Positions 1 through 22,713 of a DNA stretch of 64,000 nt are shown one piece after another. Origin of the DNA: Scylla paramamosain (taxonomy: Eukaryota > Arthropoda > Malacostraca > Decapoda > Portunidae). The stretch spans positions 13,052,501 to 13,116,500 of the forward strand of contig NC_087192.1 of the NCBI RefSeq assembly GCF_035594125.1, written 5' to 3'. A program made the translations under genes and the position numbers. Each line of letters opens with the position of its first letter. Position 1 is the stretch's first letter. A model generated the notes under the pieces. It saw nothing but the letters and a program-made list of their open reading frames with translations. It was not told the origin of the DNA and made no database searches.

Positions 1-312
1 CAAAAACTTGCCTGTGTGGAGAAGTTTCTAAGATACCAAAATGCTGAAACTCATGAATAACACTCTTAATCAAGAAACAGAACAACCTTACTAAATGCGT
101 GTATTTTGAGTGTGTTTTTTTACATTCTTAGTTACCAAAACCCCAAATTCCATGCGAAACTAACTTTATGTGTGAATAAAATGACATTACCAGAAAAGTG
201 TCTTTGAGTGTTTTTGAGCATGTTAGGCAATAAAGCACTAAAAAGCAGGGCAATCACATAACATGGGAATAAAACCAACTTTTACGAAAAACTTGGCTTT
301 TAGTGTTTTTGA
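1..312 (-). repeat. Reverse-orientation HOR end (T subtype)
   Basis: This is reverse-orientation satellite, m6 back to m3. It carries the subtype mark AATCAAGAAACAGAAC (reverse of the TTTCTTGATTAAG form), which in forward orientation is found in T-subtype HORs at about 9470, 32310 and 41210. It ends at the recurrent junction AGTGTTTTTGACACGCATTT, where an R m3 is joined to an F m5. Confidence 0.85.
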
Positions 313-790
313 CACGCATTTAGTAAGGTTGTTCTGTTTCTCAATTAAGAGTGTTATTCATGAGTTTCAGCATTTTAGTATCTAGGAAGCTTTTCCATAT
401 ACACGAGTTTTTGCGTTTTTTGGCTTGTGGTTTTTTTGAACTATAAAACATTCATTATACACTTTTCTCGCAATGTCCCTTTGTTTCCCAATATAGAGTG
501 TTTTGTATCAATTTTGTGTTTTTTTTTTGTATGTAACAAGCTCAAAAACACTCAAAATATATATTTTTGGTAATGTTTTTCTGCTTCTTGATATTGGTTG
601 GTTTGCATCAGTTTTAGCGTTTTTCTACGTAAAAGACTGAGAAGACAAGTTTTCAGTAATTTTCTTTTGGATTCCCACATAGAGAGAGTTCCTTATTATT
701 CATCGTTTTGGTGACTAACATGCTGAAAAACACTCAAAAGACAGTTTTCTGGTAAGGGCTCTTATTTCCTGATATGCGAGGCCTTGCATG
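313..790 (+). repeat. 478-bp inverted module, forward copy inside reverse array
   Basis: This is F-orientation satellite (m5 to the start of m11) bounded by R satellite on both sides. The left breakpoint near 312 and the right breakpoint near 790 (GAGGCCTTGCATG joined to TCTTTTGAGTG) are the reverse complements of the breakpoints at 60165/60166 and 59687/59688, and the length is the same (478 bp). It carries the private form GCTTCTTGATATTGG and CATCAGTTTTAGCG, shared with the other copies of the module. Confidence 0.88.
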
Positions 791-1437
791 TCTTTTGAGT
801 GTTTTTGAGCGTGTTACGCAATAAATCACTAAAAGGAAGGGCAATTACATTACATGGGAATAAAACCAAATTTTTACCACTTTACCACTTGAAGTGTTTT
901 TGAGCTCCTTACATACCAAAACGCTAAGACGCCTGCAAAATACATTTTATGGAGAAACAGAATAATATTACCAAATACATGTTTTTTGAGTGTTTTTGAT
1001 CATATTATCTATAAAAACACTTAAATACATGCACAGAACCTTATGTTTGGGAAACGAAAGGACATTACGGGAAACGTGTATTATGAGTGTTTTTTAAGTT
1101 CCTTCAATACCTAAAAGCTAAAACCCACAAATAACACTCTTTATTTAGAAAAAAATAATAAACAAAAAAAAATTAAAAAATGGGATTTTTTTTTTTTTTG
1201 TTACTCATCCTTATAGGTACCGAGATGCGAAAATTCTGCCAAAATTCAGGGTATTTATGTGGAAAGAAGAACATTACCAAAAAAGTTAATTACAGCTTTT
1301 ATTTTCGGATTGTTAAGTACCAAACCCTAAAGTGCATGCAAAGACACCTATATAGGGAACTTAAACGACTTTATCAGAAACCTGTCTTTTCAGTGTTTTT
1401 CAGCATGTTAGGCACCAACACGATAAATAATATGGAA

Positions 1438-1452
1438 GTCAGTCAATATGTG
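1438..1452 (-). other. C mark (reverse copy)
   Basis: GTCAGTCAATATGTG is the reverse of CACATATTGACTGAC, a private m9/m10 form. It lies 648-662 bp from the module boundary at 790, the same spacing as for the forward module copies. Confidence 0.88.
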
Positions 1453-2453
1453 AATCCAAAACAAAATTACTGAAAACGTGTCTTTTCAGTGTTTTACGTA
1501 GAAAAACACTAAAGCGGATGCAAACCAACCTATATGAACAAATAGAATAACATTACTAAAAAGATATATTTTGAGTGTTTTTGAGCTTGTTACCTACAAA
1601 AAATGCAAAAATGGATGTAAAGCACTCTATATTAGGAAACAAAAGGACTTTACGAGAAACGTGTATAATGAGTGTTTTATAGTTTTAAAACAACCACAAG
1701 GCAATAAACGCAAAAATTCGTGTATATAGAGAAATTTCTTACAAACCGAAATGATGAAATGCATGAATAACACTTTTAATCAATTAACAGAACTACCTTA
1801 CCAAATTGTGTATCTTAAGTGTTTTTCACATTCTTAGTTACGAAAATGCCAAATTACATGCGAAACTACCTTCATGTGGGAAAAAAAATGACATTTCCAA
1901 AAAAGTGTATTTTTAGTGTTTTTGAGCGTGATATGCAACAATGCCCTAAAAAGCAGAACAATCACATTACATGGGAATAAAACCAACTTTTACGAAGAAC
2001 TTGCCTTTAAGTGTTTTTTAACTCCTTACATACCAAATCTCTAAAACGTATGGAAAACACCCTTTATGGAGAAACAGAATAACATTCCCAAAAACATGTA
2101 TTTTGAGTGTTTTTGATCATGTAACCTATAAAAACGCTTAAATACATGTAAAGGACCCTATGTTTGTATAACAAAAGGACATTACGAAAATCGTGTATTA
2201 TGAGTATTTTTAAGTTACTTAAGTACCAAAAAGCTAAAACCCACAAATAACACTCTTTATAGAGATCTTTTTTTTTTTGTTATTCATCTTCATAGTTACC
2301 GAGATGCCAAAATTCTGGCAAAATTCATGGAAATTTTGTGAAAAAAAAATTAGCTTTTTTCCGGGGTTATGTACAAACCCTGAAGTGTATGCAAATCCAC
2401 CTATATGGGGAAATTACACGACTTTACCAGAAACCTGTCTTTTGAGTGTTTTT

Positions 2454-2471
2454 CAGCAATATCAACAATAT
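2454..2471 (-). other. N fusion (m9 joined to m10), reverse copy
   Basis: CAGCAATATCAACAATATT is the reverse of the AATATTGTTGAAATTGCTG join, which removes about 60 bp between the m9 end and the middle of m10. Forward copies are at 11550, 14087, 20155, 25511, 37373, 45873, 52552, 57975 and 62355. Variants at about 21170 and 53580 continue as TTCTGGTACAGG. Confidence 0.88.
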
Positions 2472-2754
2472 TACTGAAAACGTGTCTTTTCAGTGATTTA
2501 CGTAGAAAAACGCTAAAACGGATGTAAACCAACCAATATGAAGAAATAGAATAAAATTTCCAAAAAGATATATTTTGATGTGTTTTTGTGCTTGTTACCT
2601 ACAAAAAATGAAAAAATGGATAAAAAAGCACTTTATATTGGCAAAGAAAAGGACATTACGAGAAACGTGTATGAGTGTTTTATAGTTTGACAAGAATCAG
2701 AAGGAGAAAAACTCAAAAACTCGTGTAAAATAAAGAAGTTTCTTATATACCAAA

Positions 2755-2890
2755 AAGCTGAAACTCATGAATAACACTTTTAATTTTGAAACAGAAATAC
2801 CTTACCAAATGTGTGTATTAGAAAAGTTTCTTACATACCAAAATGCTGGAACTCATGAATAATATTTTTAATTAAGAAATAGAACAACCT
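2755..2890 (-). repeat. D duplication of m5/m6 (reverse copy)
   Basis: The m5-end/m6 segment (GAAACTCATGAATAACAC, AATTAAGAAATAG) occurs twice in tandem, the second copy being entered through TGTGTGTATTAGAAAAG. It is the reverse counterpart of the duplications near 19.7, 37.0 and 57.6 kb. Confidence 0.85.
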
Positions 2891-4703
2891 TACTAAATGC
2901 CTGTGTTTTGAGTTTTTTTTCACATTTTTAGTTACCAAAACCCCAAATTTCATGCAAAACTAGCTTTATGTAAGAAAAAAAAATGATATTACAAGAAAAG
3001 TGTTTTTTGAGTGTTTTTGACCCAGTTATGCAATAAAGCACTAAAAAGCAGGGTAATAACATTACATGGGAATAAAAACAACTTTTACCAAGAACTTGCC
3101 TTTAAGTGTTTTTGAGCTCATTACATACCAAAACGCTAAAACGCATGCAAAACACCTTTTATGGAAAAACAGAATAAAATTACCAAAAACATATATTTTG
3201 AGGGTTTAGATCATGTTATCTATAAAAATGCTTAAATACATACAAAGAGCCTTATGTTTGCGAAACGAAATGACATTACGAAAAAATGTGTATTATAAGT
3301 GTTTTTAAGTTCCTTAAGTACCGAAAAGTTAAAACCCACAAATAACACTCTTTATTTAAAAAAAAAAGGTATTCATCTTCATAGGTACTGAGATTCCAAA
3401 ATTCTGGGAAAATTTAGGGCTACTGTATGATAAAAGAAAATTATCAAAAAAGTTAATTTTAGCTTTTTTTTCCGACTGTTATATACTAAACCCTAAAGTG
3501 CTTCCAAGGACTCCTATATGAGGAAAATAAACGACCTTACCAGAAATCTGTTTTTTGAGTGTTTTTCAGCATGTTAGGCACCAAAACGATAAATAATAAG
3601 GAACTCACTCTATATGAGAATCCAAAACAAAATTGCTGAAAACGTGTCTTTTCAGTGTTTTACGTAAAAACGCTGAAACGGATGCAAACCAACCAATATC
3701 AAGAAATAGAAAAACATTACCAAAAAGGTATATTTTGAGTGTTTTTTGAGCATGTTACCTACAAAAAACGGGAAAATTGATGCAAAGCACTCTATATAAG
3801 AAAAGAAAAGGACTTTGCAAAAAAAGTGTATAATGAGTTGTTTATAGTTCAAACGAACCAAAAGGCTAAAAACATAAAAACTCGTGTATATGGAGAATGT
3901 TCCTAGATACCAAAATGCTGCTCATGAACACCACTCTTAATTGAAAAACAGAACAACCTTACTAAATGCGTGTATTTTGCGAGCTTTTCACATTCTTAGT
4001 TATCAAAACCCCAAATTGCATGCACAACCACCTTTATGTGAGGAAAAAAATGACATTACCAGAAAAGTGTCTTTTAAGTGTTTTTGAGCGTGATAGGCAA
4101 TAAAGCACTAAAAAGCACGGCAATCATATTACATTGGAATAACACCAATTTATAACAAAAAACTTGCCTTTAAGTGTTTTTGAGCTCTTTATATAACAAA
4201 CCGCTAAAACGCATGCAAAACAAACTTTATGGAGAAACCAAAAACATATATTTTGAGCGTTTTTTGATCATGTTATCTATAAAAACGTTTAAATACATGC
4301 AAAGAACATTATGTTTGGGAAACAAAAGGACTTTACGAGAAACGTGTATTATGAGTGTTTTTTTTAAGTTCCTTCAGTACCAAAAAGCTAATACCCACAA
4401 ATAACTTTCTTTATTTAGAAAATTAAAAAAGAAAAATATATAAAATAGGAATTTTTTTTTTTTTCATCTTCATGGTACCGAGATGCCGAAATTCTGGGAA
4501 AATTCAGGGGAATCGTATGATAAAAGAATATTATCAAAAAAGTTAATTTCAGCTTTTTTTTTTCAAACTGTTATGTACCAAACCCTAAAGTGCATACAAA
4601 GCCTCCTATATGAAGAAATTTAACGACCTTTCCAGAAATCTGTGTTTTGAGTGTTTTTTAGCATGTTAAGCACCAAAACGATAAATAATAAGGAACTCAT
4701 CTC

Positions 4704-4735
4704 TATATGGGAATCCATATATATATGGGAATCCA
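4704..4735. repeat. 18-bp tandem duplication
   Basis: TATATGGGAATCCA occurs at 4704 and again at 4722, separated by TATA. Other reverse HORs have it once. Confidence 0.95.
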
Positions 4736-5446
4736 AAGTTACTGAAAACGTGTCTTCTCAGTGTTTTACGTAGAAAAACACTAAACCTGATGGAAAGCAA
4801 CCAATATCAAGGAATAGAAAAATGTTACTAAAAAGGTATATTTTGAGTGTTTTTGAGCTTATTACCTACAAAAAACGCGAAAATTGATGCAAAGCATTCT
4901 ATATTGAAAAACAAAAGGACATTGCAAGAAAAGTGTATAATGAGTGTTTTATAGTTCAAAAGAACCACAAGGCAAAAAACGCAAAATCTCGTGTATATGG
5001 AGAGGTTTCCTAGATACAAAAATGCTAAAACTCATGTATAACACTCTTAATTGAGAAACAGAACAACCTTAATAAATGCGTGTATTTTGAGTGCTTTTCA
5101 CATTCTAAGTTACCAAAACCCCAAATTGCATGGGAAAATAGATTTGTGGGAAAAAAAAGACTTTACCAGAAAAGTGTCTTTTAAGGGTTTATGAGCGTGA
5201 TAGGCAATAAAGCACTAAAAAGGAGGGCAATCACATTACAATGGAGGAAAACAAATTTTTACCAAGAACTTGCCTTTAAGTGTTTTTGAGCTCCTTATAT
5301 ACCAAAACATTAAAACGCCTGCAAAACACTCTTTTTGGTGAAACAGAATAATATTACCAAAAACATATATTTTGAGTGTATTTGATTATGTTACCAATGA
5401 AAACGTTTAAATACATGCAAAGAACACTATTTTTGGGAAACGAAAG

Positions 5447-5470
5447 GAGATTACGAGATTACGAGATTAC
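5447..5470. repeat. Micro-tandem GAGATTAC x3
   Basis: Three exact 8-bp copies, in a place where other HORs have a single ATTACGAGAAACG. Confidence 0.95.
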
Positions 5471-7513
5471 GTGTATTATGAGTGTTTTTAACTTCATTAA
5501 TTACCAAAAAGCTAAAAGCCACAAATAACACTCTTTATTGAGAAACAATAAATAAATAAAAAAAAATACGATATTTTTTTTTCTTTCTTATTCATCTTCA
5601 CTGGTACCGAGATGCCAAAATTCGGGCAAAATTCAGGAAATTATGTGAAATAAGAACATTATCAAAAAAGTTAAATTTAGCTTTTTTTTCGGACTATTAT
5701 GTACCAAACCCCTAAAGTGCATGGAAAGCCACCTATATGGGGAAATTAAACGTTTTTGCCAGAAAACGGTCTTATGAGTGTTTTACAGCATCTTAGGAAC
5801 CAACACGATAAATAAGATGGAAGTCAATATATATGGGAATCCAAAACAATATTACTAAAAACGTGTCTTTTCGGTGTTTTACGTAGAAAAACGCTAAAAC
5901 GGATGCAAACTAACCAATATGAAGGAATAAAATAACATTACCAAAAAGGTATATTTTGAGTGTTTTTGAAATTGTTACCTACAAAAAACGCGAAAACAGA
6001 TGGAAAGCTCTCTATATTGGGAAACAAAAGGACATTACGAGAAACGTGTATAATGTGTGTTTTATAATTTCACAAGAACTACAAGGCAAAAAACGCAAAA
6101 ACTCGTGTATATAGAGAAGTTTCTTACATTCCAAAATGCTGAAACTCTGGAACAACACTTTAAATTGAGAAAAAGAACAATCTTACTAAATGCGTGTATT
6201 TTGAGTGCTTTTCATATCCTTAGCTACCAAAACCCCAAATTGCATGCGAAATCAGCTTTATATGGGAAAAAAATGACATTACCAGAAAAATGTCTTTTGA
6301 GTGTTTTTGAGCGTGTTAGGCAATAAAGCATTAAAAAGCAGGGCAATCACATTACATTGAAATAAAACCAATTTTTAACAAGAAGTTGCCTTTAAGTTTA
6401 TTTGAGCTCCTTATATACCAAAACACTAAAATGCATGCAAAATAAACTTGATGGTGAAACAGAATAACATTACCAAAAACATGTATTTTGAGTGTTTTGA
6501 TAATGTTACCAATAAAAACGCTTAAATACATGCAAAGAAGCCTATTTTTTGGGAAACAAAAGGGCATTACGAGAAACGTGCATTATGAGTGTTTTCAAGT
6601 TCATTAGGTACGAAAAAGCTAAAAGCCACCAATTACACTCTTTATTGAGAAAAAAATAAATAAATAAATAAAAAAATACGATAATTTTTTCATTCTTATT
6701 CATCTTCACAGATAGGGAGGTGCCAAAATTCGGGCAAAGTTAAGGAAATTATATAAAATAAGAACATTATCAAAAAAGTTACATTTAGCTTTTTTTTTGG
6801 ACTGATATGTATCAAACACCTAAATTGCATGCAGAGCCACCTATATGGGGAAATTAAACGTCTTTGCCAGAAAACTGTCTTTTGAGGGTTTTCCAGCATG
6901 TTAGAAACTAACACGATAAAACTCAAGGAAGTCAATCTATATAGGAATCCAAAACAAAATTACTGAAAACGTGTCTTTTTGGTGTTTTAAGTAGAAAACG
7001 CTAAAACGGATGCAAACCAACCAATATGAAGAAATAGAATAACATTAGTAAAAAATATATTTTGTGTTTTCTTGAGCTTGTTACATAAAAATAACGCGAA
7101 AATATATGCAAAGCACTCTATATAAGGAAAAAAAGGACATAACGAGAAACGTGTATAATGAGTGTTTTGTAGTTTTACCAGAATCACAAGGCAAAAAACG
7201 CAAAAACTCGACTATATGGAGAAGTTTCTAAAATACCAAAATACTGAAACTCATGAATAACACTCGTAATCAAGAAACAGAACAACTTTACTAAATGCGT
7301 GTATTTTAAGTGTTTTTTTTTACATTCTTAGTTACCAAAACCCCAAATTCCATGCGAAACTAGCTTGATGTGGTAAAAAAAAATGACATTACCAGGAAAG
7401 TGTCTTTGAGTGTTTTTGAGCGTGTTAGGCAATAAAACAATAAAAAGCAGGGCAATCACATTACGTGGGAATAAAACCAACTTTTACGAAGAACTTGCCT
7501 TTTAGTGTTTTTG

Positions 7514-7811
7514 ACACGCATTTAGTAAAGTTGCTCTGTTTCTCAATTAAGAGTGTTATTCATGAGTTTCAGCATATACACGAGTTTTTGCGTTTTTTGC
7601 CTTGTGTTTTTTTGAACTATAAAACATTTATTATACACTTTTCTCGCAATGTCCCTTTGTTTCCCAATATAGAGTGCTTTGTATCCAATTTCCCGTTTTT
7701 TTTTGTAGGTAACAAGCTCAAAAACACTCATAATATACATTTTGTTTTTGTGCTTCTTGATATTGGTTGGTTTGTATCAGTTTTAGCGTGTTTCTACGTA
7801 AAACACTGAAA
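7514..7811 (+). repeat. Truncated forward copy of the inverted module
   Basis: It opens with the same breakpoint as 312 (CTTTTAGTGTTTTTGACACG) and carries the private TGCTTCTTGATATTGG form, but stops inside m9 instead of running to m11. The right edge abuts R satellite in the same monomer and so forms a hairpin (7785-7859). It corresponds in mirror image to 31769-32066. Confidence 0.87.
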
Positions 7812-7859
7812 AAAATTACTGAAAACGTGTCTTTTCAGTGTTTTACGTAGAAAAACGCT
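7785..7859. repeat. Near-perfect hairpin at F/R junction
   Basis: The arms are 7785-7812 and 7832-7859, 28 bp each with one mismatch (position 7790 G), and the loop is 19 nt. The core is CTACGTAAAACACTG against CAGTGTTTTACGTAG. Weaker complementarity continues outward because both flanks are the same monomer in opposite orientation. Confidence 0.95.
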
Positions 7860-9243
7860 AAAGCAGATACAAACCATCCTATATGAAGAAATAGAATAAC
7901 ATTACCGAAAAGATATATTTTGAGTGTTTTTGAGCTTGTTACCTACAAAAAATGCAAAAATGGATGTAAAAGCACTCTATATTAGGAAACAAAAGGAGAA
8001 ACGTGTATAATGAGTGTTTTATAGTTTTAAAAGAACCACAAGGCAATAAACGCAAAATCTCGTGTATATATGGAAATTTCTTACATACCAAAATGAATAA
8101 ATGCATGAATAACACTTTTAATAGATAAACAGAACTACCTTACCAAATTGTGTATTTTCAGTGTTTTTCCCATCGTTAGTTACGAAAATGCCAAATTACA
8201 TGCGAAACTAGGTTCATGTGGGAAAAAAAAATGATATTACCAGAAAAGTGTCTTTTGAGTGTTTTTTTCAGCGTGATATGGAACAAAGCACTAAAAATAA
8301 GAACGATCATATTACATGGGAATAAAACCAACTTTTACGAAGAATTTTTTAACCCCTTATATACCAAACCGCTAAAACGCATGGAAAACAAACTTTATGG
8401 AGAAACAGAATAACATATACCAAAAACATGTATTTTTAGTGTTTTTGATCATGTTATCTTTAAAAACGCTTAAGTACATGCAAAGAACATTATGTTTGGG
8501 AAAGAAAAGGACATTACGAGAAGCGTGTATTATGAGTGTTTTTTTTTAGTTCCTTAAGTACCAAAAAGCTAAAACACACAAATAAATAAATAAATAAAGT
8601 AAAAAAATATAAAAAATAAATATATATATATTTTTTTTGTTATTCATATTCAAAGGTGCCAAATGCCAAAATTCCAGAAATGGAATGCCAGAGATGCCAA
8701 AATTCTGGGAAAATTCAGAATATTATCAAAAAAGTTAATTTCAGCTTTTTTTTTCGGACTGTTATATACCAAACCCTAAAGTGCATGCAAAATTAAACGA
8801 CCTTACCAGAAATCTGTGTTTTTAGTGTTTTTTAGCATGTTAGGCACAAAAACGATAAATAATAAGGAACTCACTCTATATGGGATTCCAAAACAAAGTT
8901 ACTGAAAACGTGTCTTCTCAGTGTTTTACGTAGAAACACGTTAAAACGGATGGAAACCAACCAATATCAAGAAATAGAAAAACGTTACCAAAAAGGTATA
9001 TTTTGAGTGTTTTTGAGCTTTTTACCTACAAAAAACGCATAAATTGATGCAAAACACTCTATATTGGGAAAGAAAAGGACTTTGCAAGAAAAGTGTATAA
9101 TAAGTGTTTTATAGTTCAAAAAAACCACAAGGCAAAAGACGAAAAAACTCGTGTGTATGGAGAAGCTTCCTAAATACTAAAATGCTGAAACTCATGAATA
9201 ACACTCTTAATTAAGAAACAGAACAACCTTACTAAATGTGTGT
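7812..9243 (-). repeat. Reverse-orientation HOR array up to the main switch point
   Basis: This is a little more than one R HOR, with its linker near 8635-8660 followed by an internal shuffle (8658-8700) that repeats part of the GCCAAAATTC segment. The start matches, in reverse, the HOR that ends near 30940 (CATCCTATATGAAG versus CTTCATATAGGATGG). The end, CTAAATGTGTGT, is joined to forward CAAAAACACTAAAAGGC at 9243/9244. Confidence 0.85.
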
Positions 9244-9721
9244 CAAAAACACTAAAAGGCAAGTTCTTCGTAAAAGTTGGTTTTATTCCCATGTAATGTG
9301 ATTGCCCTGCTTTTTAGTGCTTTATTGCCTAACACGCTCAAAAACACTCAAAGACACTTTTCTGGTAATGTCATTTTTTTCCCACATAAAGTTAGTTTCG
9401 CATGGAATTTGGAATTTTGCTAAGAATGTAAAAAAAAAAACCCAAAATGCATGCATTTAGTAAGATTTTTTTGTTTCTTGATTAAGAGTGTTTCAGCATT
9501 TTGGTATCTTAGAAACTTCTCTACACAGACGAATTTTTGCGGTGTTTGCCTTGTGATTCTGGTGAAACTATAAAACACTCATTATACACGTTTCTCGTTC
9601 TGTCCTTTTTTTTTTTATGTAACAAGATCAAACACACACAAAATATACTTTTCTGGTAATATTATTCTCTTTTTTTTCATATTGGTTGGTTTGCATCAGT
9701 TTTAGCGTTTTTCTACGTAAA

Positions 9722-9733
9722 TCTTTTAAAAGA
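9722..9733. repeat. T-subtype 12-bp palindrome TCTTTTAAAAGA
   Basis: It replaces the ACACTGAAAAGA of m9. Exact copies are at 32597-32608, 41495-41506 and 60302-60313. It marks the HOR that begins at a structural discontinuity. Confidence 0.9.
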
Positions 9734-10611
9734 CACGTTTTCAATAATTTTGTTTTAGATTTCCATATAGAGTGACTTTAATATTATTTATCGTTTTGGT
9801 GCCTAACATACTTTTTGGTGGCTTTTGCCTAACATGCGTAAAAACACTCAAAAGACAGGTTTCTTGTAAAGACGTTAAATTTTCCCAAATAGGTGGCTTT
9901 GCATACACTTTATGGTTTGGTACATAACTCCAAATATTCTTTTTTCAACATAATTTCCATGAATTTTGGCAGAATTTTGGCATCTTGGTATCTATTAACA
10001 TGAATAACAAAAAAACTAAAAATGCTATTTTTTTATTTTAATTTTTTTTTCTCTATAAAAAGTGTTATTTGTAGGTTTTAACGTTTTGGCACTTAAGCAA
10101 CTTAAAAACATTCATAATACACATTTCTCGTAATGTCCTTTCGTTTCCCAAATATAGGGATCTTTGCATGTATTTAAGCGTTTTTATAGGTAACATGATA
10201 AAAAACACTCAAAAACACTTGTTTTTCGTGATGTTATTCTGCTTCTCCATAAAAGAGTGTTTTGCATGCGTTTTAGCGATTTGGTATGTAAGGAGCTGAA
10301 AAACACTTCAAGGCAAGTTCTTTGTAAAAGTTGGTTTTATTCCAATGTAATATGATTGCCCTGCTTTTTAGTGCTTTATTGCCTAACACGCTCAAAAACA
10401 CTCAAAAGACACTTCTGGTAATGTCATTTTTTTCCCTCATAAAGCTAGTTTCCCATGCTATTTGAGGTTTTGCTAAGAATGTGAAAAAACACTCAAAATA
10501 CAGGCACTTGGTAATGTTGTTCTGGTTCAGAATTAAAATTGTTATTCATAAGTTTCAGCATTTTGGTGTCTAAGAAACTTCTTTATATACACGACTTTAT
10601 GCGCTTTATAC

Positions 10612-10635
10612 CTTGTGTTTCTTGTGAACCACAAG
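10612..10635. repeat. P hairpin insertion in m7 (copy 1)
   Basis: Arms CTTGTGTTTC and GAACCACAAG (9 of 10 paired), loop TTGT. It belongs to the P1 subtype, whose linker-side deletion follows near 10885. Confidence 0.9.
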
Positions 10636-10881
10636 TTCTTTTGCCCGAATATAAAAAGACAATCATTATAGACGTTTCTCGTAATGTCCTTCTCTTTCCC
10701 AATAGGGAGTGCTTTGCATTCATTTTCGCGTTTTTTTCTAGGTAACAAGCTCAAAAACACTCAAAATATACCTTTTTGGTACTGTTATTCTATTTCTTCA
10801 TATTGATTGGTTTGCATCCGTTTTAACGTTTTTCTACGTAAAACACCGAAAAAACACGTTTTCAGTAATTTTGTTTTCGAT

Positions 10882-10902
10882 TCCCAAAGAATATTGCCAG
10901 AA
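10882..10902 (+). other. P1 deletion scar (m9 joined to m12), copy 1
   Basis: GATTCCCAAAGAATATTGCC joins m9 to the m12 tail and removes m10, m11 and part of m12 (about 200 bp). The same join occurs near 42588, 45015 and 61455. Confidence 0.9.
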
Positions 10903-11285
10903 TTTTTGCATCTTAGTACCTATGAAGATGAATAACAAAAAAAAATATTTTATTTATTTTTAAGGAACTTAAAAACACTCATAATACTCGTAATGTTCTT
11001 TCGATTCCCAAACATAAGTTTCTTTGCATGTATTTAAGCGTTTTTATAATTAACATTATCAAAAACACTGAAAATTCATGTTTTTGGTAATGTTACTCTG
11101 TTTCTCCATAAAAGGGTGTTTTTGCATGCGTTTTAGCGTTTTGGCATGTAAGGAGTTAAAAAAAAAAACCCTTAAAGGCAAGTTCTTCGTAAAAGTTGGT
11201 TTTATTCCCATGTAATATGATTGTTCTGCTTTTTAGTGCTTTGTTGCATATCACGCTTAAAAACACTCAAAAGACATTTTTTTGG

Positions 11286-11300
11286 TAATATCTAGTTTTT
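11286..11300 (+). other. m4-to-m7 fusion
   Basis: GGTAATATCTAG runs straight into TTTTTTCGTTTTTTGCC, so m5 and m6 are missing in this HOR. Confidence 0.8.
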
Positions 11301-11662
11301 TCGTTTTTTGCCTTGTGGTTCGTATGAAACTATAAAACACTCATTGTACACGTTTCTCGTAATGTTCTTTTGTTTCCCAATATTGAGTACTTTCCATCCA
11401 TTTTCGCATTTTTTCTAGGTAACAAGTTGAAAAACACTCAAAATATATCTTTTTGGTAAAGTTATTCTATTTCTTCATATTTGTTGGTTTGCATCCGTTT
11501 TAGCATTTTTCTTCGTAAATCACTGAAAAGACACGTTTTTAGTAATATTGTTGAAATTGCTGAAAAACACTCAAAAGACAGATTTCTGGTAAAGTCGTGT
11601 AATTTCCCCATATAGGTGGCTTTGCATGCACTTCTGGGTTTGATACATAATTCCGGAAAAAA

Positions 11663-11685
11663 GCTAATTTTTTTTTACATGTCCT
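11663..11685 (+). other. m11-to-m1 fusion, copy 1
   Basis: After CCGGAAAAAAGCTAA and a T-run the sequence jumps to ATGTCCTTTCATTTCACAG, so the whole linker is missing. The same fusion is near 45990-46005. Confidence 0.88.
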
Positions 11686-12907
11686 TTCATTTCACAGACA
11701 TAGGGTTCTTTGCATGTATTTAAGCGATTTTATAGGTAACATGATCAAAAACACTCAAAATACATGGTTTTGGTAATGTTATTCTGTTTCTCCATAAAGG
11801 GTGTTTTACATGCGTTTTAGCGTTTTGGTATGTAAGAAGTTAAAAAAACATTTAAAGGCAAGTTCTTCGTAAAAGTTAGTTTTATTCCTATATAATGTGA
11901 TTATTCTGCTTTTTAGTGCTATTTTTGCATATCACGCTCAAAACACTCAAAAGACACTTTTCTGATAATGTCATTTTTTTCCCACATAAAGTTAGTTTCG
12001 CATGTAATTTGGGATTTTCGTAACTAAGAATGTGAAAAACACTCAAAATACATACACTTGGTAAGGTAGTTCTGTTTCTCAATTAAAAGTGTTATTCATG
12101 AGTTTTAGCATTTTGGTATATAAGAAACTTCTCAATATACACGAGTTTTTGCTTTTTTTGTCTTCTGATTCTTGTGAAACTATAAAACAATCATTATACA
12201 CTTTTCTCTAAATGTCCTTTTGCTTCCCAATATAGACTGCTTTTACATCCATTTTAGCGTTTTTTGTAGGTAAAAAGCATTATAAATGTTTCTCGTAATG
12301 TCCTTTTGTTTCCCAATATAGAGAGATTTGCATCCATTTTCGCTCAAAACACAAAAAATACCTTTTTGGTAATATTATTTTATTTCATGATATTGGTTGA
12401 TTTGCTTTCTCTTTAGCGTTTTTCTACGTAAAACACTGAAAAGACACGTTTTCAGTAATTTTGTTTTGGATTCCCATACGGAGTGATTTCCATATTATTT
12501 ATTGTTTTGGTTTCTAACATACTGAAAAACAGGCAGAAGACAGGTTTCAGGTAAAGTCGTTTAATTTCCCCATATAGGTGGCTCTACATGCACTTTAGGG
12601 TTTGGTACATAACGGTCTGAAAAAAAGCTAAAATTAACTTTTATGATATTCTTTTTTTCACATAATTTCCCTGAATTTTGCCAGAATTTTGGCATCTCGA
12701 TACCTATGAAGATCAATAAAAAAAATGCTATTTTTTCATTTATTTATTTTTTCTCTATAAAGAGTGTTATTTGTGGGTTTAAGCTTTTTGGTACTTAAGG
12801 AACGTAAAAACACTCATAATACTCGTTTCTCGTAATGTCCTTTTGTTTCCTAAAGATAAGGTTCTTTACATAATTATATTATATTGAAGCGTTTTTATAG
12901 GTAACAT

Positions 12908-12930
12908 GATCAAAAACACTCAAAATATAC
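12908..12930 (+). other. m2-to-m8 fusion; shortest HOR (about 540 bp)
   Basis: ACATGATCAAAAACACTC (m2) continues as AAAATATACCTTTTGG (m8). The join is inside the shared box, as expected from unequal exchange between monomers. The linkers on either side (12710 and 13250) are only about 540 bp apart. Confidence 0.85.
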
Positions 12931-15122
12931 CTTTTGGTAATGTTATTCTATATCTTCATATTGGTTGGTTTCCATCCGTGTTTAGCGTTTTTTCTACGTA
13001 AACACAGAAAAGACATGTTTTCAGTAATTTTTGGATTCCCATATAGAGTGACTTCCATGTTATTTATCGTTTTGATGCCTAACATGCTGAAAAACACTCA
13101 AAAGACAGGTTTCTTGTAAAGTCGTTTAATTTCGTTTTGGTTTGGTACATAACAGTCAGAAAAATAGCTAAAATTAACCTCTTTTATAATATTCTTTTTT
13201 CACGTAATTTTCCTGAATTTTGCCAGAATTTTGGCATCTCGTTGCCTATGAAGATCAATAAAAAAAAAATGTTATTTTTTAATTTATTTTTATTTATTTT
13301 TTTTCTGTATGAAGAGTGTTATTTGTGGGTTTTAGCTTTTTGGTACTTAAGGAACTTGTAAACACTCATAATACACGTTCCTCGTAATGTCCTTTTATTC
13401 CCAAACTTAGGGTTCTTTGCATGTATTTAAGCATTTTTATTGGTAACAAGCTCAAAAACACTCAAAATACATGTTTTTGATAATGTTATTCTGTTTTTCC
13501 ATACAGGGTGTTTTGCATGGGTTTTAGCGTTTTAGTATGTAAGGAGCTCAAAAAAACTTAAAGGCAAGTTCTTGGTAAAAGTTGGTTATATTCCCATGTA
13601 TTGTGATTGCCCTGCTTTTTAATGCTTTATTGCCTAACACGCTGAAAAACACTAAAAAGACACTTTTCTAGTAATTTCATTTTTTTCCACAGTTTCGCAT
13701 GTAATTTGGGGTTGGACCACTAAGAATGTGAAAAAAAACACTCAAAATACACTCAATTCCTAAAATTGTTCTGTTTCTCAATTAAGAGTGTTATTCATGA
13801 GTTTCAGCATTTTGGTATCTAAGAAACTTCTCCATATATGCGAGTTTTGCGTTTTTTGCCTTATGGTTTTTGAAAACTATTAATACATTCATTATACAAT
13901 TTTCTTGTAATATCCTTTTGTTTCCCAATATAGACTGCTTTGCATTCATTTTTGCGTTTTTTGTAGGTAACAAACTCAAAAACACTCAACTTTTTTGTAA
14001 TGTTATTCTATTTCATCATATTTGTTGGTTTGCATCCGTTTTAGTCTTCTACGCTAAAACTGAAAAGACACGTTTTCAGTAATATTGTTGAAATTGCTGA
14101 AAACACCCAAAGACACGTTTCTTGTAAAGTCGTGTAATTTCCCCATATAGGTGGCTTTGCATGCACTTCCGGGCTTCGTACATAACTCCAGAAAAAGCTA
14201 AAATAATTTTTTTTATGTTTTTTTCACATAATTTCCCTGAATTTTCTCAGAATTTTGGCACCTCGTTACAAATGAAGATGAATAACAAAAAAAAAAAATC
14301 TATTTTTTTTAGATATTTTTTTCTCTATAAAGAGTGTTATTTGTGGGTTTTAGATTTTTGGTACTTAAGGAACTTAGAAATACTCATAATACACGATTTT
14401 CGTAATGTCCTTTCGTTTCACAAACATAGGGTTCTTTGCATGTATTTAAGCGATTTTATAGGTAACATGATTAAAAACAATCAAAATACATGTTTTTGGT
14501 AATGTTATTCTGTTTCTTCATAAAGGTTGTTTTGCATGTGTTTAGCGTTTTGGTATGTAAGGAGTTAAAAAACACTTAAAGGCAAGTTCTTCGTAAAATT
14601 TGGTTTTATTCCAATGTAATGTGATTGTTCTGCTTTTTAGTGTTTTGTTCCATATCACGCTCAAAAACACTCAAAAGACACTTTTCTAGTAATGTCATTT
14701 TTTTCCACCATAAAGGTAGTTTTGCATGTAATTTGGAATTTTCGTGACTAAGAATGTGAAAAACACTCAAAATACACACATTTGGTAAGGTAGTTCTGTT
14801 TTTCAATTGAAAGTGTTATTCATGAGTTTTAGCGTTTTGGTATGTAAGAATCTTCTCTATATAGACGAGTTTTTGCGTTTTTTGCATTGTGGTTCTTGTG
14901 AAACTATAAAACACTCATTATACACGTTTCTCGTAATGTCCTTTTGCTTCCTAATATAGAGTGCTTTCCATCCATTTGCGCGTTTTTTTGTAGGTAAAAA
15001 GATAAAAAACACTTTTTGGTAATGTTATTCTATTTCTTCATATTTGTTGGTTTGCATCCGATTCAGCGTTTTTCTACGTAAAACACTGAAAAGACACGTC
15101 TTCAGTAATTTTGTTTTGGATT

Positions 15123-15137
15123 CACATATTGACTGAC
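15123..15137 (+). other. C mark CACATATTGACTGAC
   Basis: A private form of the m9/m10 boundary. Exact forward copies are at 26530, 30964, 38428, 46724 and 59031. The next HOR is either P2 or the inverted module. Confidence 0.9.
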
Positions 15138-15960
15138 TTCCATATTATTTATCGTTTTGGTGCCTAACATGCTGGAAAACACTGAAAAGACAGGTTTCTG
15201 GTAAAGTCGTTTAACTTCCTTATATAGGTGGCATGCACTTTAGAGTTTGGAACATAAGAATCCGAAAAAGAGCTATAATTAACTTTTTTGATTATGTTCT
15301 TTTTTCCACATAAATTCCCTGAATTTTGGCAGAATTTTGGCATCTTGGTACCTATGAAAATCAATATAAAAAAAGCTATTTATTTATTTATTTTTTCTTT
15401 CTTTATAAAGAGTGTTATTTATTGGTTTTAACGTTTTGTTACTTAAGCAATTTAAAAACGGTCCTAATACACGTTTTTCGTGATGTCCTTTCGTTTCCCA
15501 AACATAGGGTTCTTTGCATGTATTTAAGCATTTTTATAGATAACATGATCAAAAGGACTTAAAACACATGTTCTTAGTAATGTTATTCTGCTTCTCCATT
15601 AAGGAGTTTTTTTTGCCTGCGTTTTGGTTTGTAAGGAGGTCAAAAATACTTCAAGGCAAGTTCTTGGTAAAAGTTGGTTTTATTCCCATGTAATGTGATT
15701 GCCCTGTTTTTTTTTTTTTTTTTATATAATTTATTTCCTAAAACGCTCAAAAACACTCAAAAGACACTTCTGGTAATGTCATTTTTTTCCAACATAGATT
15801 CGCGTTCTATTTGGGGTTTTGCTAAGAATGTGAAAAACACTCAAAATACACGCATTTGGTAAGGTTGTTCTGTTTCTCAATCAATATTGTTATTCATGAG
15901 TTTCAGCATATTGGTATCTAAGAAATTTCTTTATATACACGAATTTTTTGCGTTTTTTGC

Positions 15961-15984
15961 CTTGTAGTTCTTGTGAACCACAAG
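15961..15984. repeat. P hairpin insertion in m7 (copy 2)
   Basis: Arms CTTGTAGTTC and GAACCACAAG (9 of 10), loop TTGT. P2 subtype, 838 bp after the C mark at 15123. Confidence 0.9.
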
Positions 15985-16435
15985 TTCTTTTGCTCAAAAA
16001 TAATAAGACACTCATTATACACGTTTCTCGTAATGTCCTTTTGTTTCCCAATAGGGAGTGCTTTGCATCAATTTTCGCGTTTTTTGTAGGTAACAAGCTC
16101 AAAAACACTCAAAATGTACCTTTTTGGTAATGTAGTTTTATTTCTTCTTATTGGTTGGTTTGCATCCGTTTAAGCGTTTTTCTACGTAAAACACAGAAAA
16201 GACACGTTTTCAGTAATTTTGTTTTAGATTCCCATATAGAGTGACGCATGTTATTTACCGTTATGGTGCCTAACAAGCTGAAAAACACTCATAAGACAGT
16301 TTTCTGGCAAAGACGTTTAATTTTCCCATATAGGTGGCTTTGCATGCACTTTAGGGTTTGGTACATAACAACACGAAAAAAAAGCTAAAATTAACTTTTT
16401 TGATAATTGACAAATAATTTCCTGAATTTTGCCCA

Positions 16436-16465
16436 AATTTTGCCAAAAACATGCAAAATGTATGT
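16436..16465 (+). other. m12-to-m2 fusion
   Basis: GCCCAAATTTTGCCAAAAAC is followed by ATGCAAAATGTATGTTTTTGG. The linker and m1 are missing, which explains the gap between the linkers at 15350 and 17285. Confidence 0.82.
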
Positions 16466-17894
16466 TTTTGGTAATATTATTCTCTTTCTCCATAAAGTTT
16501 GTTTTGCATGCGTTTTAGAGTTTTGGTAAAATTTATTTTATTGCCATGATTCCCCTGCTTTTTAGTGCTCTATTCCCTATCACGCTCAAAAACATTCAAT
16601 AGACACTTTTCTCGTAATGTCATTTTTTCCCACATAAAGCTGGTTTCCCATGCAATTTGGGATTTTGGTAACTAAGAAAAGCACTTAAAATACGCGCATT
16701 TAGTAAAGTTGTTCTGTTTCTCAATTAAGAGTGTTATTCATGAGTTTCAGCATTTTGGTATCTAGGAAACTTCTCCATATACACGAGTTTTTGCGTTTTT
16801 TGCCTTTTGGTTCTTTTGAACTATAAAACATTAATTATACACTTTTCTCGCAATGTCCTTTTGTTCCCCAATATAAATTGCTTTTTAATCAATTTTCGCG
16901 TTTTTTTATAGGTAACAAGCTCAAAAACACCCAAAATATATCTTTTTGGTAATGTTTTTCTACTTTTTGATATTGGTTGGTTTGCATTCTTTTTAGCGTC
17001 TTTCTACGTAAAACACTGAGAAGACACGTTTTCAGTAATTTTGTTTTGGTTTCCCATATAGAGTGAGTTCCTTATTATTGATCGTTTTGGTGCCTAACAT
17101 GATGAAAAACACTCAAAACACAGATTTCTAGTAAGGTCGTTTAATTTCCTCATATAGGAGGCTTTGCATGTACTTTACTGTTTGGTACATAACAGTCCGA
17201 GAAAAAGCTAATATCAACTTTCTTTTATAATATTCTCTTATCATATAATTGCCCTAATTTTTCCCAGAATTTTGGCATCTCGGTACCTATGAAGGTGAAT
17301 AATAAAAAAAAAGAGTCTTTTTATCTATTTATTTTTTTATTTTTTTTTCTAAATAACGAGTGTTATTTGTGGGTTTTAGCTTTTTATTACTTAAGGAACT
17401 TAAAAACACTCATAATACACGTTTCTCGTAATGTCCTTACGTTTCCCAAACATAAGGTTCTTTGCATGTATTTAAGCTTTTTATAGATAACACAATCAAA
17501 AACACTCAAAATACATGTTTTTGGTAATGTCATTCTGTTTCTCCATAAAGTTTGTTTTCCATGCGTTTTAGCGGTTTGGTATGTGAGGAGCTTAAAAACA
17601 CATATTGGCAAGTTCTTGGTAAAAATTGGTTTTATTCATATGTAATGTGATTGCCCTGCTATTTATTACTTCATTGCCTAACATGCTGAAAAACAATTAA
17701 AACACACTTCTGGTAATGTCATTTTTTTCCCTCATAAAGCTAGGTTCGCATGCTATTTAGGGTACTGCTAACTAGGAATATGAAAAACACTCAAAATACA
17801 TGCATTTGCTAAAGTCGTTCTGTTTCTCAATTAAGATTGTTATTCATGAGTTTCAGCATTTTTGTATCTAAGAAACTTCTTTATATACACGAGT

Positions 17895-17912
17895 TTTTGC
17901 GTTTTTCTACGT
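17895..17912 (+). other. m7-to-m9 fusion
   Basis: CGAGTTTTTGCGTTTTTC (m7) runs into CTACGTAAAACACTGAG (m9) through the shared GCGTTTTT. About 190 bp is missing. Confidence 0.85.
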
Positions 17913-19714
17913 AAAACACTGAGAAGATACATTTTCAGTAATTTTGTTTTGGATTCCCATATAGAGTGAGTTCCTTATTATTTATCGTTTTGGTGCCTAA
18001 CATGCTGAAAAATACTCAAAAGACAGATTTCTGGTAAGGTCGTTTAATTTCCTCATATTGGAGGCTTTGCATGCACTTTAGGGTTTGGTACATAACATTC
18101 CGAAAAAAAAGATAAAATTAACTTTTTTGATAATATTCTTTGGTTCATAAAATTTTCCTGAATTTTCCCAGAATTTTGGCATCTCGGTACCTATGAAGAT
18201 GAAAATAAAAAATTTCTATTTTTTTTTCTAAATAAAGAGTGTTATTTGTGGGTTTTAGCTTTTTGGTACTTAGGAAACTTAAAAAAAAACACTCATAATC
18301 CAAGTTTTTCGTAATGTCCTTCTGTGTCCCAAACATAATGTTCTTTGCATGTATTTAAGCGTTTTTTAGAGATAACATGATAAAAAACACCCAAATTACA
18401 TGTTTTTGGTAATGTTATTCTGTTTGTCCATAAAGTTTGTTTTGCATGCGTTTTAGCGGTTTTGTATATAAGGAGCTCAAAAACATTTAAGGGCAAGTTC
18501 TTGGTAAAAATTGGTTTTATTCCAATGAAAAGTGATTGCCCTGCTTTTTAGTGCTTTATTGCCTATCACGCTCAAAAACATTCAAAGGACATTTTTCTAG
18601 AAATATCATGTTTTCCCATATAAATCTGGTTTTGCATGAAATTTGCGTTTTTAGTAACTAAGAATATGAAAAACACTCAAAACACACGAATTTGGTAAGG
18701 TTGTTCTGTTTCTCAATTAAGAGTGTTATTCATGAGTTTCATCATTTTGGTATCTAGGAAACTTTTCCATATACACGTGTTTTTGCGTTTTTTGCCTTGT
18801 TGTTCCTTTGAACTATAAGACACTCATTATACACTTTTCTCGCAATGTCCCTCTGTTTCCCAATATAGAGTGCTTTGTATCAATTTTAGCATTTTTTTTA
18901 GGTAACAAGCTCAAAAACACTCAAAATATACCTTTTTGGTAATGTTTTTTTCTATTTCTTGGTATTGGTTGGTTTGCATCCATTTTAGCGTTTTTCTACG
19001 TAAAACACTGGGAAGACACGTTTTCAGTAATTTTGTTTTGGATTCCCATATAAAGTGAGTTCCTTATTTATTTATCTTTTTGGTGCCTAACATTTTGAAA
19101 AACACTCAAAAGACAGATTTTTTTTAAGGTCGTTTAATTTCCTCATATAGGAGGCTTTGCATGCACTTTAGGGTTTGGTATATACTAGTCCGAAAAAAAA
19201 AACTAAAATTAACTTTTTTGATAATTTTCTTTTATCATATAATAGCCCGGAATTTCCCTAGAATATTGGCATCTCGGTATCTATGAAGATGATTAACAAA
19301 AAATAAATAAATCCAATTTCTTTATTTTTTATTTATTTAGTTTTTCTAAATAAAGAGAGTTATTTGTGGGTTTTAGCTTTTTAATACTTAAGGTACTTAA
19401 AAACACTGATAATACATATTTCTCGTAATGTCCTTTCGTTTCCCAAACATAAGGTTCTTTGCATGTATTTAAATACATGTTTTTGGTAATGTTATTCTTT
19501 TTGTCCATAAAAGGTGTTTTGCATGCATTTTAGCGTTTTGCTATGTAACGAGCTCAAAAACACCTAAAAGTAAGTTCTTGTTGGTTTTATTCCCATGTAA
19601 TGTGATTGCCCTGCACTCCCAAAAACACTCGAAAGACATTTTCTGGTAATATTATTTTTTTCCCGAATGGAATTTGGGGTTTTGGTAACTAAAAATGTGA
19701 AAAACTCTCAAAAT

Positions 19715-19880
19715 ACAGGCATTTAGTAAGGTTGTTCTGTTTTTTAATTAAAAGTGTTATTCATGAGCTTCAGTATTTTGGTATGTAAGAAACTTCTCTA
19801 ATACACACATTTGGTAAGGTAGTTCTGTTTCTCAATTAAAAGTGTTATTCATAAGTTTCAGGATTTTGGTGTGTAAGAAA
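19715..19880 (+). repeat. D duplication of m5/m6
   Basis: Two successive copies of the AATTAAAAGTGTTATTCAT...GTAAGAAACTTCT segment, joined through CTCTAATACACACATTTGG. Confidence 0.88.
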
Positions 19881-22713
19881 CTTCTTTATGTACACGAGTT
19901 TTTGAGTTTTTTGCCTTGTGGTTCTTGTGAAACTATAAAACACTCATTATACACATTTCTTGCAATGATTTTTTCTTTCCAAATATAGAGTGCGTTTCAT
20001 CCATTTTCGAAATTTTTTGTTGGTAACAAGCTCAAAAACACATAAAAATATATCTTTTTGGTAATGTTATTCTATTTCTTCATATTGGTTGGTTTGCATC
20101 CGTTTTAGCGTTTTTCTACATAAATCACTGAAAAGACACGTTTTCAGTAATATTGTTGAAATTGCTGAAAAAAACACTCAAAAGACATGTTTCTGGTAAA
20201 TTCGAGTAATTTCTCCATATCGGTGGCTTTGCATGCACTTCAGGGTTTGGAACATAACTCCGGAAAAAAGCTGATTATTTTTTTCATAATGATTTTTTTT
20301 TACAAAATTTCCCTGCATTTTCCCAGAATTTGGTATCTCGGTACCTATGAAGATGAATAACAATTTTTTTTTCTCTATAAAGTATTATTTGTGAGTTTTA
20401 GCTTTTTGGTACTTAAGGAACTTAAAAACACTCATAATACATGATTTTCGTAATGTTCTTTTCTTATACAAACATGGGGTTATTTACATGTATTTAAGCG
20501 TTTTTATAGGTAACATGATCAAAAACACTCAAAATACATATTTTTGGTAATGTTATTCTGTTTCTCCATAAAGGGTGTTTTTACATGCGTTTTAGCGTTT
20601 TGGTATGTAAGGAGTTAAAAAACACTTAAAGGCAAGTTCTTCGTAAAAGTTGGTTTTATTCCCAAGTAATATGATTGTTCTGCTTTTTAGTGCTTTGTTG
20701 CATCACGCTCAAAAACACTCAAAAGACATTTTTCTGGTAATGTCATTTTTTTCCCACATAAAGCTAGTTTCGCATGTAATTTGGCAATTTCGTAACTATG
20801 AATGTGAAAAACACTCAAAATACACAATTTGGTAGGGTAGTTCTTTTTCTCGATTAAAAGTGTTTTTCATGCATTTCATCATTTTTGTATGTAAGAAACT
20901 TCTCTATATACACAAGTTTTTGCGTTTATTGCCTTGTGGTTCTTGTTAAACTATAAAACACTAATTATACACGTTTCTCGTAATGTTCTTTTCTTTCCTA
21001 ATATAGAGTGTTTTCCATCCATTTTTGCATTTGTTGTAGGTAACAAGCATAAAAACACTCAAAAAATATCGTTTTGGTAATGTTATTCTCTTTCTTCACA
21101 TTGGTTGGTTTGCATGTTTTAGCTTTTTTCTTCGTAAATCTCTGAAAAGACTCGTTTTCAGTAATTTTGTTGAAATTAATTCTGGTACAGGTTTCTGGTA
21201 AAATTGTGTAATTTTCCCATATAGGTGGCTTTGCATGCACCTTAGGGTTTGGTACATAACTCCGGAAAAAAGCTAAAATTTTTTTTTTTTTTCTTTACCT
21301 AATTTCCCTGAATGTTGCCAGAATTTTGGCATCTCGGTACCTATGAAGATGAATAACAAAAAAAAAAAAAAAAAATTGTATTCATTTATTTTATTTTTTT
21401 TCTCTATAAAGAGTGTTATTTGTGTGTTTTAGCTTTTTGGTACTTAATGAACCTAAAAATTCTCATAATACACAATTTTCGAAATATCCTTTCGTTTCAC
21501 AAACATAGGGTTCTTTGCATGTATTTTAGCGTTTTTATAGGTAACATGATCAAAAACACTTAAAATTCATGGTTTTGGTAATGTTATTTTGTTTTTCCAT
21601 AAAGAGTGTTTTGCATGCGTTTTAGCGTTTTGTTATATAAGGAGTTAAAAACACTTAAATTTTTGGTAAAAGTTGGTTTCATTCCCACGTAATGTGATTG
21701 TTCTGCTTTTTAGTGCTTTGTTGTATATCACGCTTCTAAAACACTCACAAGACACTTTTCTGGTAATGTCATTTTTTTCCCACATAAAACTAATTTCACT
21801 TGTAATTTCGGATTTTCGTAACTAAGAATGTGAAAAACACTCAAAATACTCACATTTGGTAAGATAGTTCTGTTTCTCAATTAAAAGTCTTATTCATGAG
21901 TTTCAGCATTTTGGAATGTAAGAAACTTCTTTATATACACGAGTTTTTGCGTTTTTTGCCTTGTGGTTCCTGTGAAACTATAAAACACTCATTATACACG
22001 TTTCTCGTAATGTCCTTTTGCTTCCCAATATAGAGTGTTTTCCATCCATTTTCGCGTTTTTTGTAGGTAACAATTTCAAAAACACTCAAAATATACTTTT
22101 TTGGTAATGTTATTCTATATCTTCACTTTGGTTGGTTTGCATCCGTTTTAGCGTTATTGTACGTAAAACTCCGAAAAGACACGTTTTCAGTAATTGTGTG
22201 TTGGATTCCCATATAGATTGACTTCCTTGGGTTTTATCGTGTTGGTTCCTAACATGCTGAAAAACACTCATAAGACAGTTTTTTGGCAAAGAGGTTTAAT
22301 TTTTCCATATAGGTGGCTTTGCATGCACTTTAGGGTTTGGTACATAACAATCCGAAAAAAAACCTAAATTTAACTTTTTTGATAATGTTCTTATTTCATA
22401 TAATTTCCTGAACTTTGACCGAATTTTGGCACCTTGTTACCTGTGAATATGAATAAGAATGAAAAAAAATATCGTATTTTTTTATTTCTTTATTTATTTT
22501 TTCTCAATAAAGAGTGTAATTTGTGGCTTTTAGCTTTTTCGTACTTAATGAACTTAAAAACACTCATAATACACTTTTCTCGTAACGTCCTTTCGTTTCC
22601 TAAAAATAGGGTTGTTTGCATGTACTTAAGCGTTTTTATTGGTAACATGATCAAAAACACTCAAAGAACATGTTTTTGGTAATGTTATTCTGTTTCACAA
22701 TAAAGTGTATTTT

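What the first reader, a model, noticed from the sequence alone, without database searches (positions are those of the whole stretch)
791..9243. Left 9 kb is a mirror-image copy of about 29.5-39.1 kb
Rare marks occur in reverse order with nearly constant coordinate sums (about 39.83 kb for 5.8/34.0, 6.9/32.9, 2.82/37.0 and 2.46/37.37; about 39.6 kb for the module edge; about 38.8 kb beyond it), and a 63-codon frame is translated identically on opposite strands. The inverted module is mirrored too (forward at left, reverse at right). This is a multi-HOR inverted duplication, not a set of independent flips.
Basis: partly seen in the sequence, partly recalled or inferred. Interest (0 to 1): 0.8.

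Follow-up and report, generated by a model that had tools for sequence, protein, structure and literature searches.

The report
Crab satellite array copied in both orientations
The left end of the window is indeed a mirror-image relative of two other stretches, but in this crab's putative centromere DNA most blocks exist in both directions on many chromosomes, which suggests a copying process that ignores orientation.

Summary
The mirror-image observation is real. Window ~1-8.75 kb is the collinear reverse complement of 30.0-38.65 kb (90.0% over its longest piece) and of 53.6-60.2 kb (87.8%); other hits per tile have a median of 81.6%. The window is satellite throughout: 96-bp monomers in ~1,109-bp higher-order repeats (HORs) of a brachyuran crab, probably a portunid.

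The inverted run is -216 to 9243 and starts left of the window. The edge at 791 belongs to a small inverted module whose junctions recur: 21 of 32 head-to-head and 18 of 32 tail-to-tail switches in 264 kb.

A is not simply a copy of 29.5-39.1 kb. Its closest relatives found are same-orientation copies at 95-98%, 20.9 kb upstream and on other contigs, sharing its junctions. Block pairs are inverted about as often as direct: 47-58% in bins from 78% to 95% identity, 49% expected. Orientation shows no memory on trees of block copies.

Best reading: blocks and their strand-switch junctions are copied without regard to orientation, by template switching or ectopic reinsertion. Nearest known case: macro-dyad satellite arrays of Tribolium beetles.

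The parts
1..64000 (.). Satellite array: ~96-bp monomers in HORs of ~1,109 bp, both strands
   Evidence: Autocorrelation and word spacing; 2353 monomer hits in 264 kb; HOR profile covers 99.1% of the window
1..9243 (-). Block A: reverse-oriented run (true start -216, left of the window) with two embedded forward modules; ends at a tail-to-tail junction identical in type to the module's
   Evidence: Strand runs, HOR phases
312..740 (+).
7514..7814 (+). Second, shortened module in block A (phase 683-1014)
9242..9243 (.). Tail-to-tail switch (phase 683- | 474+), right end of block A; spanned in 35 of 35 scored loci on 15 contigs
29913..38647 (+). Block B, mirror-image relative of A (90.0% over 32710-38647)
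31660..32082 (-). Inverted module in block B
   Evidence: region 31300-32400 found in 39 of 40 scored loci over at least 1,096 of 1,101 bases
53601..60190 (+). Block C, second mirror-image relative of A (87.8%)
59737..60165 (-). Inverted module in block C, with an altered right edge (phase 683- | 892+)

Best explanation
The window lies in a putative centromeric satellite array of a crab, probably a portunid. The array changes by copying multi-kilobase blocks of HORs, with whatever strand-switch junctions they contain, to other places in the same array and on other chromosomes, without regard to orientation. Blocks A, B and C are three members of one such block family, A in one orientation and B and C in the other. 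New strand switches arise rarely. One event made the inverted module (phase 590 | 47-bp linker | 1109 to 683 inverted | 474, with a 2-base overlap at the second junction), and it has been copied with its host HORs since. Block A's right boundary is a junction of that type; its left boundary (phase 1109 | 998, near fold-back) is a different junction that has also spread. Shown: homology, junction identity, orientation statistics, spread over contigs. Inferred: the biochemical step, most likely template switching during break-induced replication, or reinsertion of extrachromosomal copies; and that the array is centromeric.
For: Block pairs of at least 1 kb in 264 kb are inverted in 1306 of 2751, 1536 of 3170, 433 of 864, 179 of 337, 45 of 86, 18 of 31 and 7 of 9 cases, from 78-82% up to 95-97% identity; 0.49 is expected for random orientation. 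Trees of block copies need 12 orientation changes where shuffled labels need 13.0, and 11 where shuffled labels need 10.5, without C22 rows and without one arm of the tandem duplication. Listed copies of five probes make 146 same-strand and 160 opposite-strand pairs within contigs. The A opening junction is in 40 of 40 scored loci on 18 contigs, at 95-98% outside the window's own; the closing junction in 35 of 35 on 15 contigs. C22 carries the block collinear with the window at 96-97%. Real junctions cluster in families at 85% identity where five sets of 32 random head-to-head junctions give no cluster.
Against: The one block pair above 97% identity is a direct 11.35-kb tandem duplication, so orientation-keeping exchange also acts. 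Only the fragment of 95-97% pairs (9) is young enough to speak to recent events. Pairs and probes overlap and are not independent. Only one contig was read at length (264 kb of C42, plus 20 kb of C22). Block order is partly kept over tens of kb on other contigs, so much of the spread may be by larger units. No reads and no other individual were seen.
Confidence: 0.58

Rival explanations
1. Inversion in place: blocks are duplicated in direct orientation by unequal exchange and later flipped by recombination between inverted repeats; the small inverted modules, inverted HOR pieces within an array, would be natural partners.
For: Two large tail-to-tail switches near block A (-5624 and 9243) are module-type junctions. 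Inverted copies of a ~750-bp segment lie near both ends of A (1-750 and 8.8-9.55 kb, 90%). The youngest pair is a direct duplication.
Against: Flips would have to be as frequent as duplications even among 95-97% pairs, 7 of 9 inverted. The large head-to-head junctions are not module junctions. In all 9 listed cases A-left and A-right keep the same relative orientation, 0 opposite downstream; one opposite pair was seen on the upstream side.
Confidence: 0.25
2. A single local inverted duplication made A from the 29.5-39.1 kb stretch.
For: Collinear inverted chain at 90.0% with nearly constant coordinate sum.
Against: Closer relatives in the same orientation at 95-98%; tree position; both end junctions shared on many contigs.
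Confidence: 0.05
3. Macro-dyad arrangement kept by selection: inverted arms serve as hairpins or protein targets in the centromere, as proposed for Tribolium.
For: Structural likeness to the Tribolium arrays (PMC13081366, passages); junctions recur at 95-98%.
Against: An ordinary HOR probe of the same length is about as conserved, 94-97%, against 95-98% and 91-97% for two junction probes. Arm lengths vary widely. Only one ordinary probe was tried.
Confidence: 0.08
4. Assembly artefact: fold-back reads or misjoined satellite contigs.
For: Satellite arrays are hard to assemble, and no reads could be checked here.
Against: Mirror arms differ by about 5-12%; the same junctions recur in many loci at 95-98%; no N in 264 kb.
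Confidence: 0.04

Closest known systems
Macro-dyad satellite arrays of Tribolium madens, T. freemani and T. castaneum (PMC13081366; abstract and passages seen)
   Same: A short ancestral unit (~110 bp there, ~96 bp here) built into higher-order repeats; multi-kb inverted subarrays in both orientations; a few inversion-site types that recur; putative (peri)centromeric arrays on many chromosomes.
   Different: Crustacean, not beetle; sequence relation not tested. One satellite family here, not a major/minor pair. A short inverted module inside HORs is the commonest switch. Orientation statistics by age and a control probe of ordinary HOR were made here; the control shows no clear extra conservation of switch sites.
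Alpha-satellite HOR arrays of human and other primates (PMC11062924; passages seen)
   Same: Monomers in higher-order repeats; mosaic blocks; large inversions on some chromosomes.
   Different: There inversions are described as individual large events; here 64 switches lie in 264 kb.
Inverted amplification by template switching in yeast (ODIRA, PMC10766183; abstract and outline seen)
   Same: A mechanism that makes inverted junctions at short inverted repeats and places inverted copies by homologous recombination.
   Different: Shown in yeast; here it is only a candidate mechanism.

Membership tests
Macro-dyad satellite arrays (Tribolium type) | Tandem satellite built from a short ancestral unit | tested here: met
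   96-bp monomer, 1,109-bp HOR, 99.1% of the window
Macro-dyad satellite arrays (Tribolium type) | Multi-kb inverted subarrays | tested here: met
   Large strand runs of kilobases to tens of kilobases; e.g. 56.8-62.3 kb against 72.65-67.2 kb at 95.3%
Macro-dyad satellite arrays (Tribolium type) | Recurrent inversion-site types | tested here: met
   21 of 32 and 18 of 32 switches within 2 phase positions of one type each; family clustering against random junctions
Macro-dyad satellite arrays (Tribolium type) | Inversion sites more conserved than the rest of the array | tested here: inconclusive
   Junction probes 95-98% and 91-97%, ordinary probe 94-97%, among the top 40 scored each
Macro-dyad satellite arrays (Tribolium type) | (Peri)centromeric location | tested here: inconclusive
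   Listed copies of four probes span at most 1.32 Mb per contig on 27 contigs; no CENP-A or cytology
Macro-dyad satellite arrays (Tribolium type) | Confirmation on raw long reads; presence in extrachromosomal circles | not testable with these tools
   No reads available
Transposable element or mobile unit | Long coding frame | tested here: not met
   9 ORFs of at least 90 aa, the longest 116 aa; no family search was run on them
Transposable element or mobile unit | Target-site duplications at block ends | not tested
   Not examined
CENP-B-box satellites | 17-bp CENP-B box | tested here: not met
   0 matches at up to 1 mismatch in the window, 2.73 expected by chance

The most novel reading that the evidence does not exclude
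Centromeric satellite arrays in a crab evolve mainly by orientation-blind ectopic copying of kilobase blocks within and between chromosomes, not by orientation-keeping unequal crossing-over. Macro-dyad architecture, which a 2026 paper says is documented only in Tribolium beetles, is then a general by-product of this copying in arthropods rather than a selected structure.
Probability: 0.4. Interest if true: 0.75.

Novelty: new variant of a known kind. Interest (0 to 1): 0.56.

Why it matters
Standard models of satellite evolution (established knowledge, not from a call) rest on unequal crossing-over and in-register gene conversion, which keep strand orientation. Here the inverted share of block pairs is about one half at most levels of divergence, and copies on several contigs are mixed in orientation. 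That is a simple, countable mark of a different dominant process. A 2026 paper says macro-dyad satellite arrays have been documented only in Tribolium (PMC13081366, passage). A crustacean case, with a control that shows no clear extra conservation of switch sites, lets the 'selected hairpin' and 'by-product of copying' readings be tested against each other in other assemblies.

Tried and rejected
A first clustering of junctions without a strict identity limit put 31 of 32 head-to-head switches in one family. Random pseudo-junctions cluster at 65% too (largest group 16 of 32), so I dropped that claim and kept families at 85% or more, where the five random sets give none. The random sets were of head-to-head type only.

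I considered that block A flips between the inverted copies of one segment near its ends (1-750 and 8.8-9.55 kb). All 9 listed A-left to A-right pairs keep relative orientation, so frequent flipping of A alone is not supported.

I asked whether the flanks of large inverted runs join in HOR phase, as a clean insertion or inversion would demand. Reading by eye, the phase differences were mixed and decided nothing.

A plant origin was made unlikely by no RuBisCO large-subunit match. Mitochondrial COX1, with TGA read as tryptophan, then pointed to a brachyuran crab: Thalamita integra 97% and Charybdis hellerii 96% (98% of the query covered) of residues, other crabs at up to 95%. That these two are portunids is recalled. 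The species is not identified.

No CENP-B-box match. Literature searches aimed at crustacean or inverted satellite arrays showed no crustacean precedent in their listings; the library holds open-licence papers only. PMC10454600 (passages) and PMC13427858 (two reference-list passages) did not bear on it.
Full report
WHERE IT IS. The window is C42:13,052,501-13,116,500 of a 1.21-Gb, 234-contig genome. A mitochondrial COX1 on contig C234 is 97% identical in protein to Thalamita integra and 96% to Charybdis hellerii, with other crabs at up to 95%, so the source is a brachyuran crab, probably a portunid; the species is not identified. A 96-bp periodicity and a HOR of about 1,109 bp account for 99.1% of the window and 98.4% of the 264 kb around it. 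Block A's HOR units have a median of about 86% identity to 32 forward units of the window, so this is a divergent, old array. The listed hits of five probes lie on 29 contigs. For the four probes mapped they span at most 1.32 Mb on each of 27 contigs, which is why I call the array putatively centromeric.

THE OBSERVATION. It holds. Self-alignment gives 1230-7123 against 38647-32710 at 90.0% and 287-6878 against 60190-53601 at 87.8%. 30 of 33 tiles starting at 251-8251 have their best in-window hit on one of these chains; the exceptions start at 251, 1751 and 6751. A 65-residue identical reading on opposite strands exists at sum 39,825; I take it for conserved DNA, not a gene.

ANATOMY. HOR phase shows what the marks are. 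Block A is a reverse run from -216 to 9243 with small forward modules at 312-740 and 7514-7814. In forward arrays the same module is reverse. It is HOR phase 683-1109 inverted, placed after phase 590 with a 47-bp linker and followed by phase 474 with a 2-base overlap. These two junctions recur within 2 phase positions in 21 of 32 head-to-head and 18 of 32 tail-to-tail switches of the 264 kb; with looser limits, 23 and 22. 19 linkers and 16 tail-to-tail joints printed side by side are visibly alike. At 85% identity over the junction, 21 of 32 and 19 of 32 switches form one family each, against no cluster in five sets of 32 random head-to-head junctions. Most large switches are of other kinds. 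Block A opens at -248 with phase 1109 | 998, shared in this stretch only with the mirror junction at -48.7 kb, and closes at 9243 with a module-type junction.

BEYOND THE WINDOW. The genome searches score at most 40 candidates each, so counts are lower bounds. Block A's left 2.2 kb has 27 other places covering at least 2,167 of 2,210 bases at 94-98%, on 14 contigs counting the window's own, and 6 more over nearly its full length at 90-91%. The opening junction is in 40 of 40 scored loci (own included; others 95-98%) on 18 contigs. The closing junction is spanned in 35 of 35 (others 90-95%) on 15 contigs, although the main alignment of all 34 others starts at base 210 or later of that probe. 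The module region is in 39 of 40 over at least 1,096 of 1,101 bases (others 91-97%) on 19 contigs. An ordinary 701-bp HOR probe gives 94-97% for its other 39 copies on 14 contigs, so switch sites are not clearly more conserved than the rest. On C22 the block is collinear with the window from -2638 to 6031 at 97.5%, then 6895-7813 and 7812-10339 at about 96.5%, with about 0.86 kb missing and about 0.79 kb added. Orders recur on other contigs: A-left to A-right 9 same orientation and 0 opposite; module to B 12 and 0; A-right to module 10 and 5; A-right to B 6 and 1 (own locus counted in each). On the wrong side, as a control: module upstream of A-right 3 and 0, B upstream of A-right 1 and 2, A-right upstream of A-left 0 and 1. 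The mirror arrangement of A against B is thus found, at 18-26 kb spacing, on C15, C113, C49 and C47 as well.

ORIENTATION IS NOT REMEMBERED. In the 264 kb, block pairs of at least 1 kb are inverted in 1306 of 2751 (78-82% identity), 1536 of 3170 (82-85), 433 of 864 (85-88), 179 of 337 (88-91), 45 of 86 (91-93), 18 of 31 (93-95) and 7 of 9 (95-97). The one pair above 97% is a direct 11.35-kb tandem duplication (99.2%). 0.49 is expected under random orientation. These pairs overlap and are not independent. A tree of 39 copies of window 3370-6878 (4 of them from C22) needs 12 orientation changes, 11 forced by well-supported branches; shuffled labels need 13.0 on average, with 179 of 500 as low. 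Without the C22 rows and one arm of the tandem duplication, 33 copies need 11, 10 forced; shuffled labels need 10.5, with 374 of 500 as low. On other contigs, listed copies of five probes make 146 same-strand and 160 opposite-strand pairs within contigs (C42 included; several probes are linked).

MECHANISM. Unequal sister exchange and in-register gene conversion keep orientation (established knowledge), so they cannot be the main source of this pattern, though the tandem duplication shows that such exchange acts too. Copying blocks into either orientation explains the pattern in one step. Candidates are break-induced replication with template switching (my inference), inverted amplification followed by homologous integration (PMC10766183, abstract and outline), or circular intermediates, which the Tribolium authors report for T. 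freemani (PMC13081366, passage). Inversion in place, perhaps seeded by the modules, is the main rival: it would have to be as frequent as duplication even among 95-97% pairs, and it does not explain why the large head-to-head junctions are not module junctions.

COMPARISON. The nearest known kind is the macro-dyad satellite arrays of Tribolium, which that paper says have been documented only in that genus. This crab meets the structural features. Extra conservation of inversion sites and centromere identity are inconclusive here, and read support could not be tested. A paper on human and ape centromeres describes large inversions in some alpha-satellite arrays (passages). My searches listed no crustacean precedent in an open-licence library.

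VERDICT. A true observation with a wider cause. The left 9 kb is a mirror-image cousin of two other blocks, inside an array whose blocks appear to have been copied in both directions many times and on many chromosomes.

Noticed in passing
right of the window, window-relative 73345-95894 (C42:13125845-13148394): A recent direct tandem duplication of an 11.35-kb block at 99.2% identity, the youngest pair seen in the 264 kb.
   Followed up: partly
window 56800-62307 against window-relative 72650-67209: A younger mirror pair than A/B, 95.3% over 5.5 kb, largely outside the window; the reverse run goes on as a mirror of 48629-44252 at 95.5%.
   Followed up: partly
C134:348033-352976: Two copies of block A's left 2.2 kb in opposite orientations, about 0.7 kb apart: a near palindrome.
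   Followed up: no
genome G000, many contigs: 87 matches to mitochondrial COX1 pieces, four of them full length on nuclear contigs or C234: many nuclear copies of mitochondrial DNA.
   Followed up: no
window-relative -5196 to -4567: A 630-bp stretch not covered by the HOR profile, the longest of five over 100 bp in the 264 kb.
   Followed up: no
window 49322-50088: A local direct duplication of a 377-bp unit (2.0 copies, 85% matches) inside the HOR array.
   Followed up: no
window 6031-6895 and 7813: The C22 copy lacks about 0.86 kb and has about 0.79 kb more than the window at these places.
   Followed up: no
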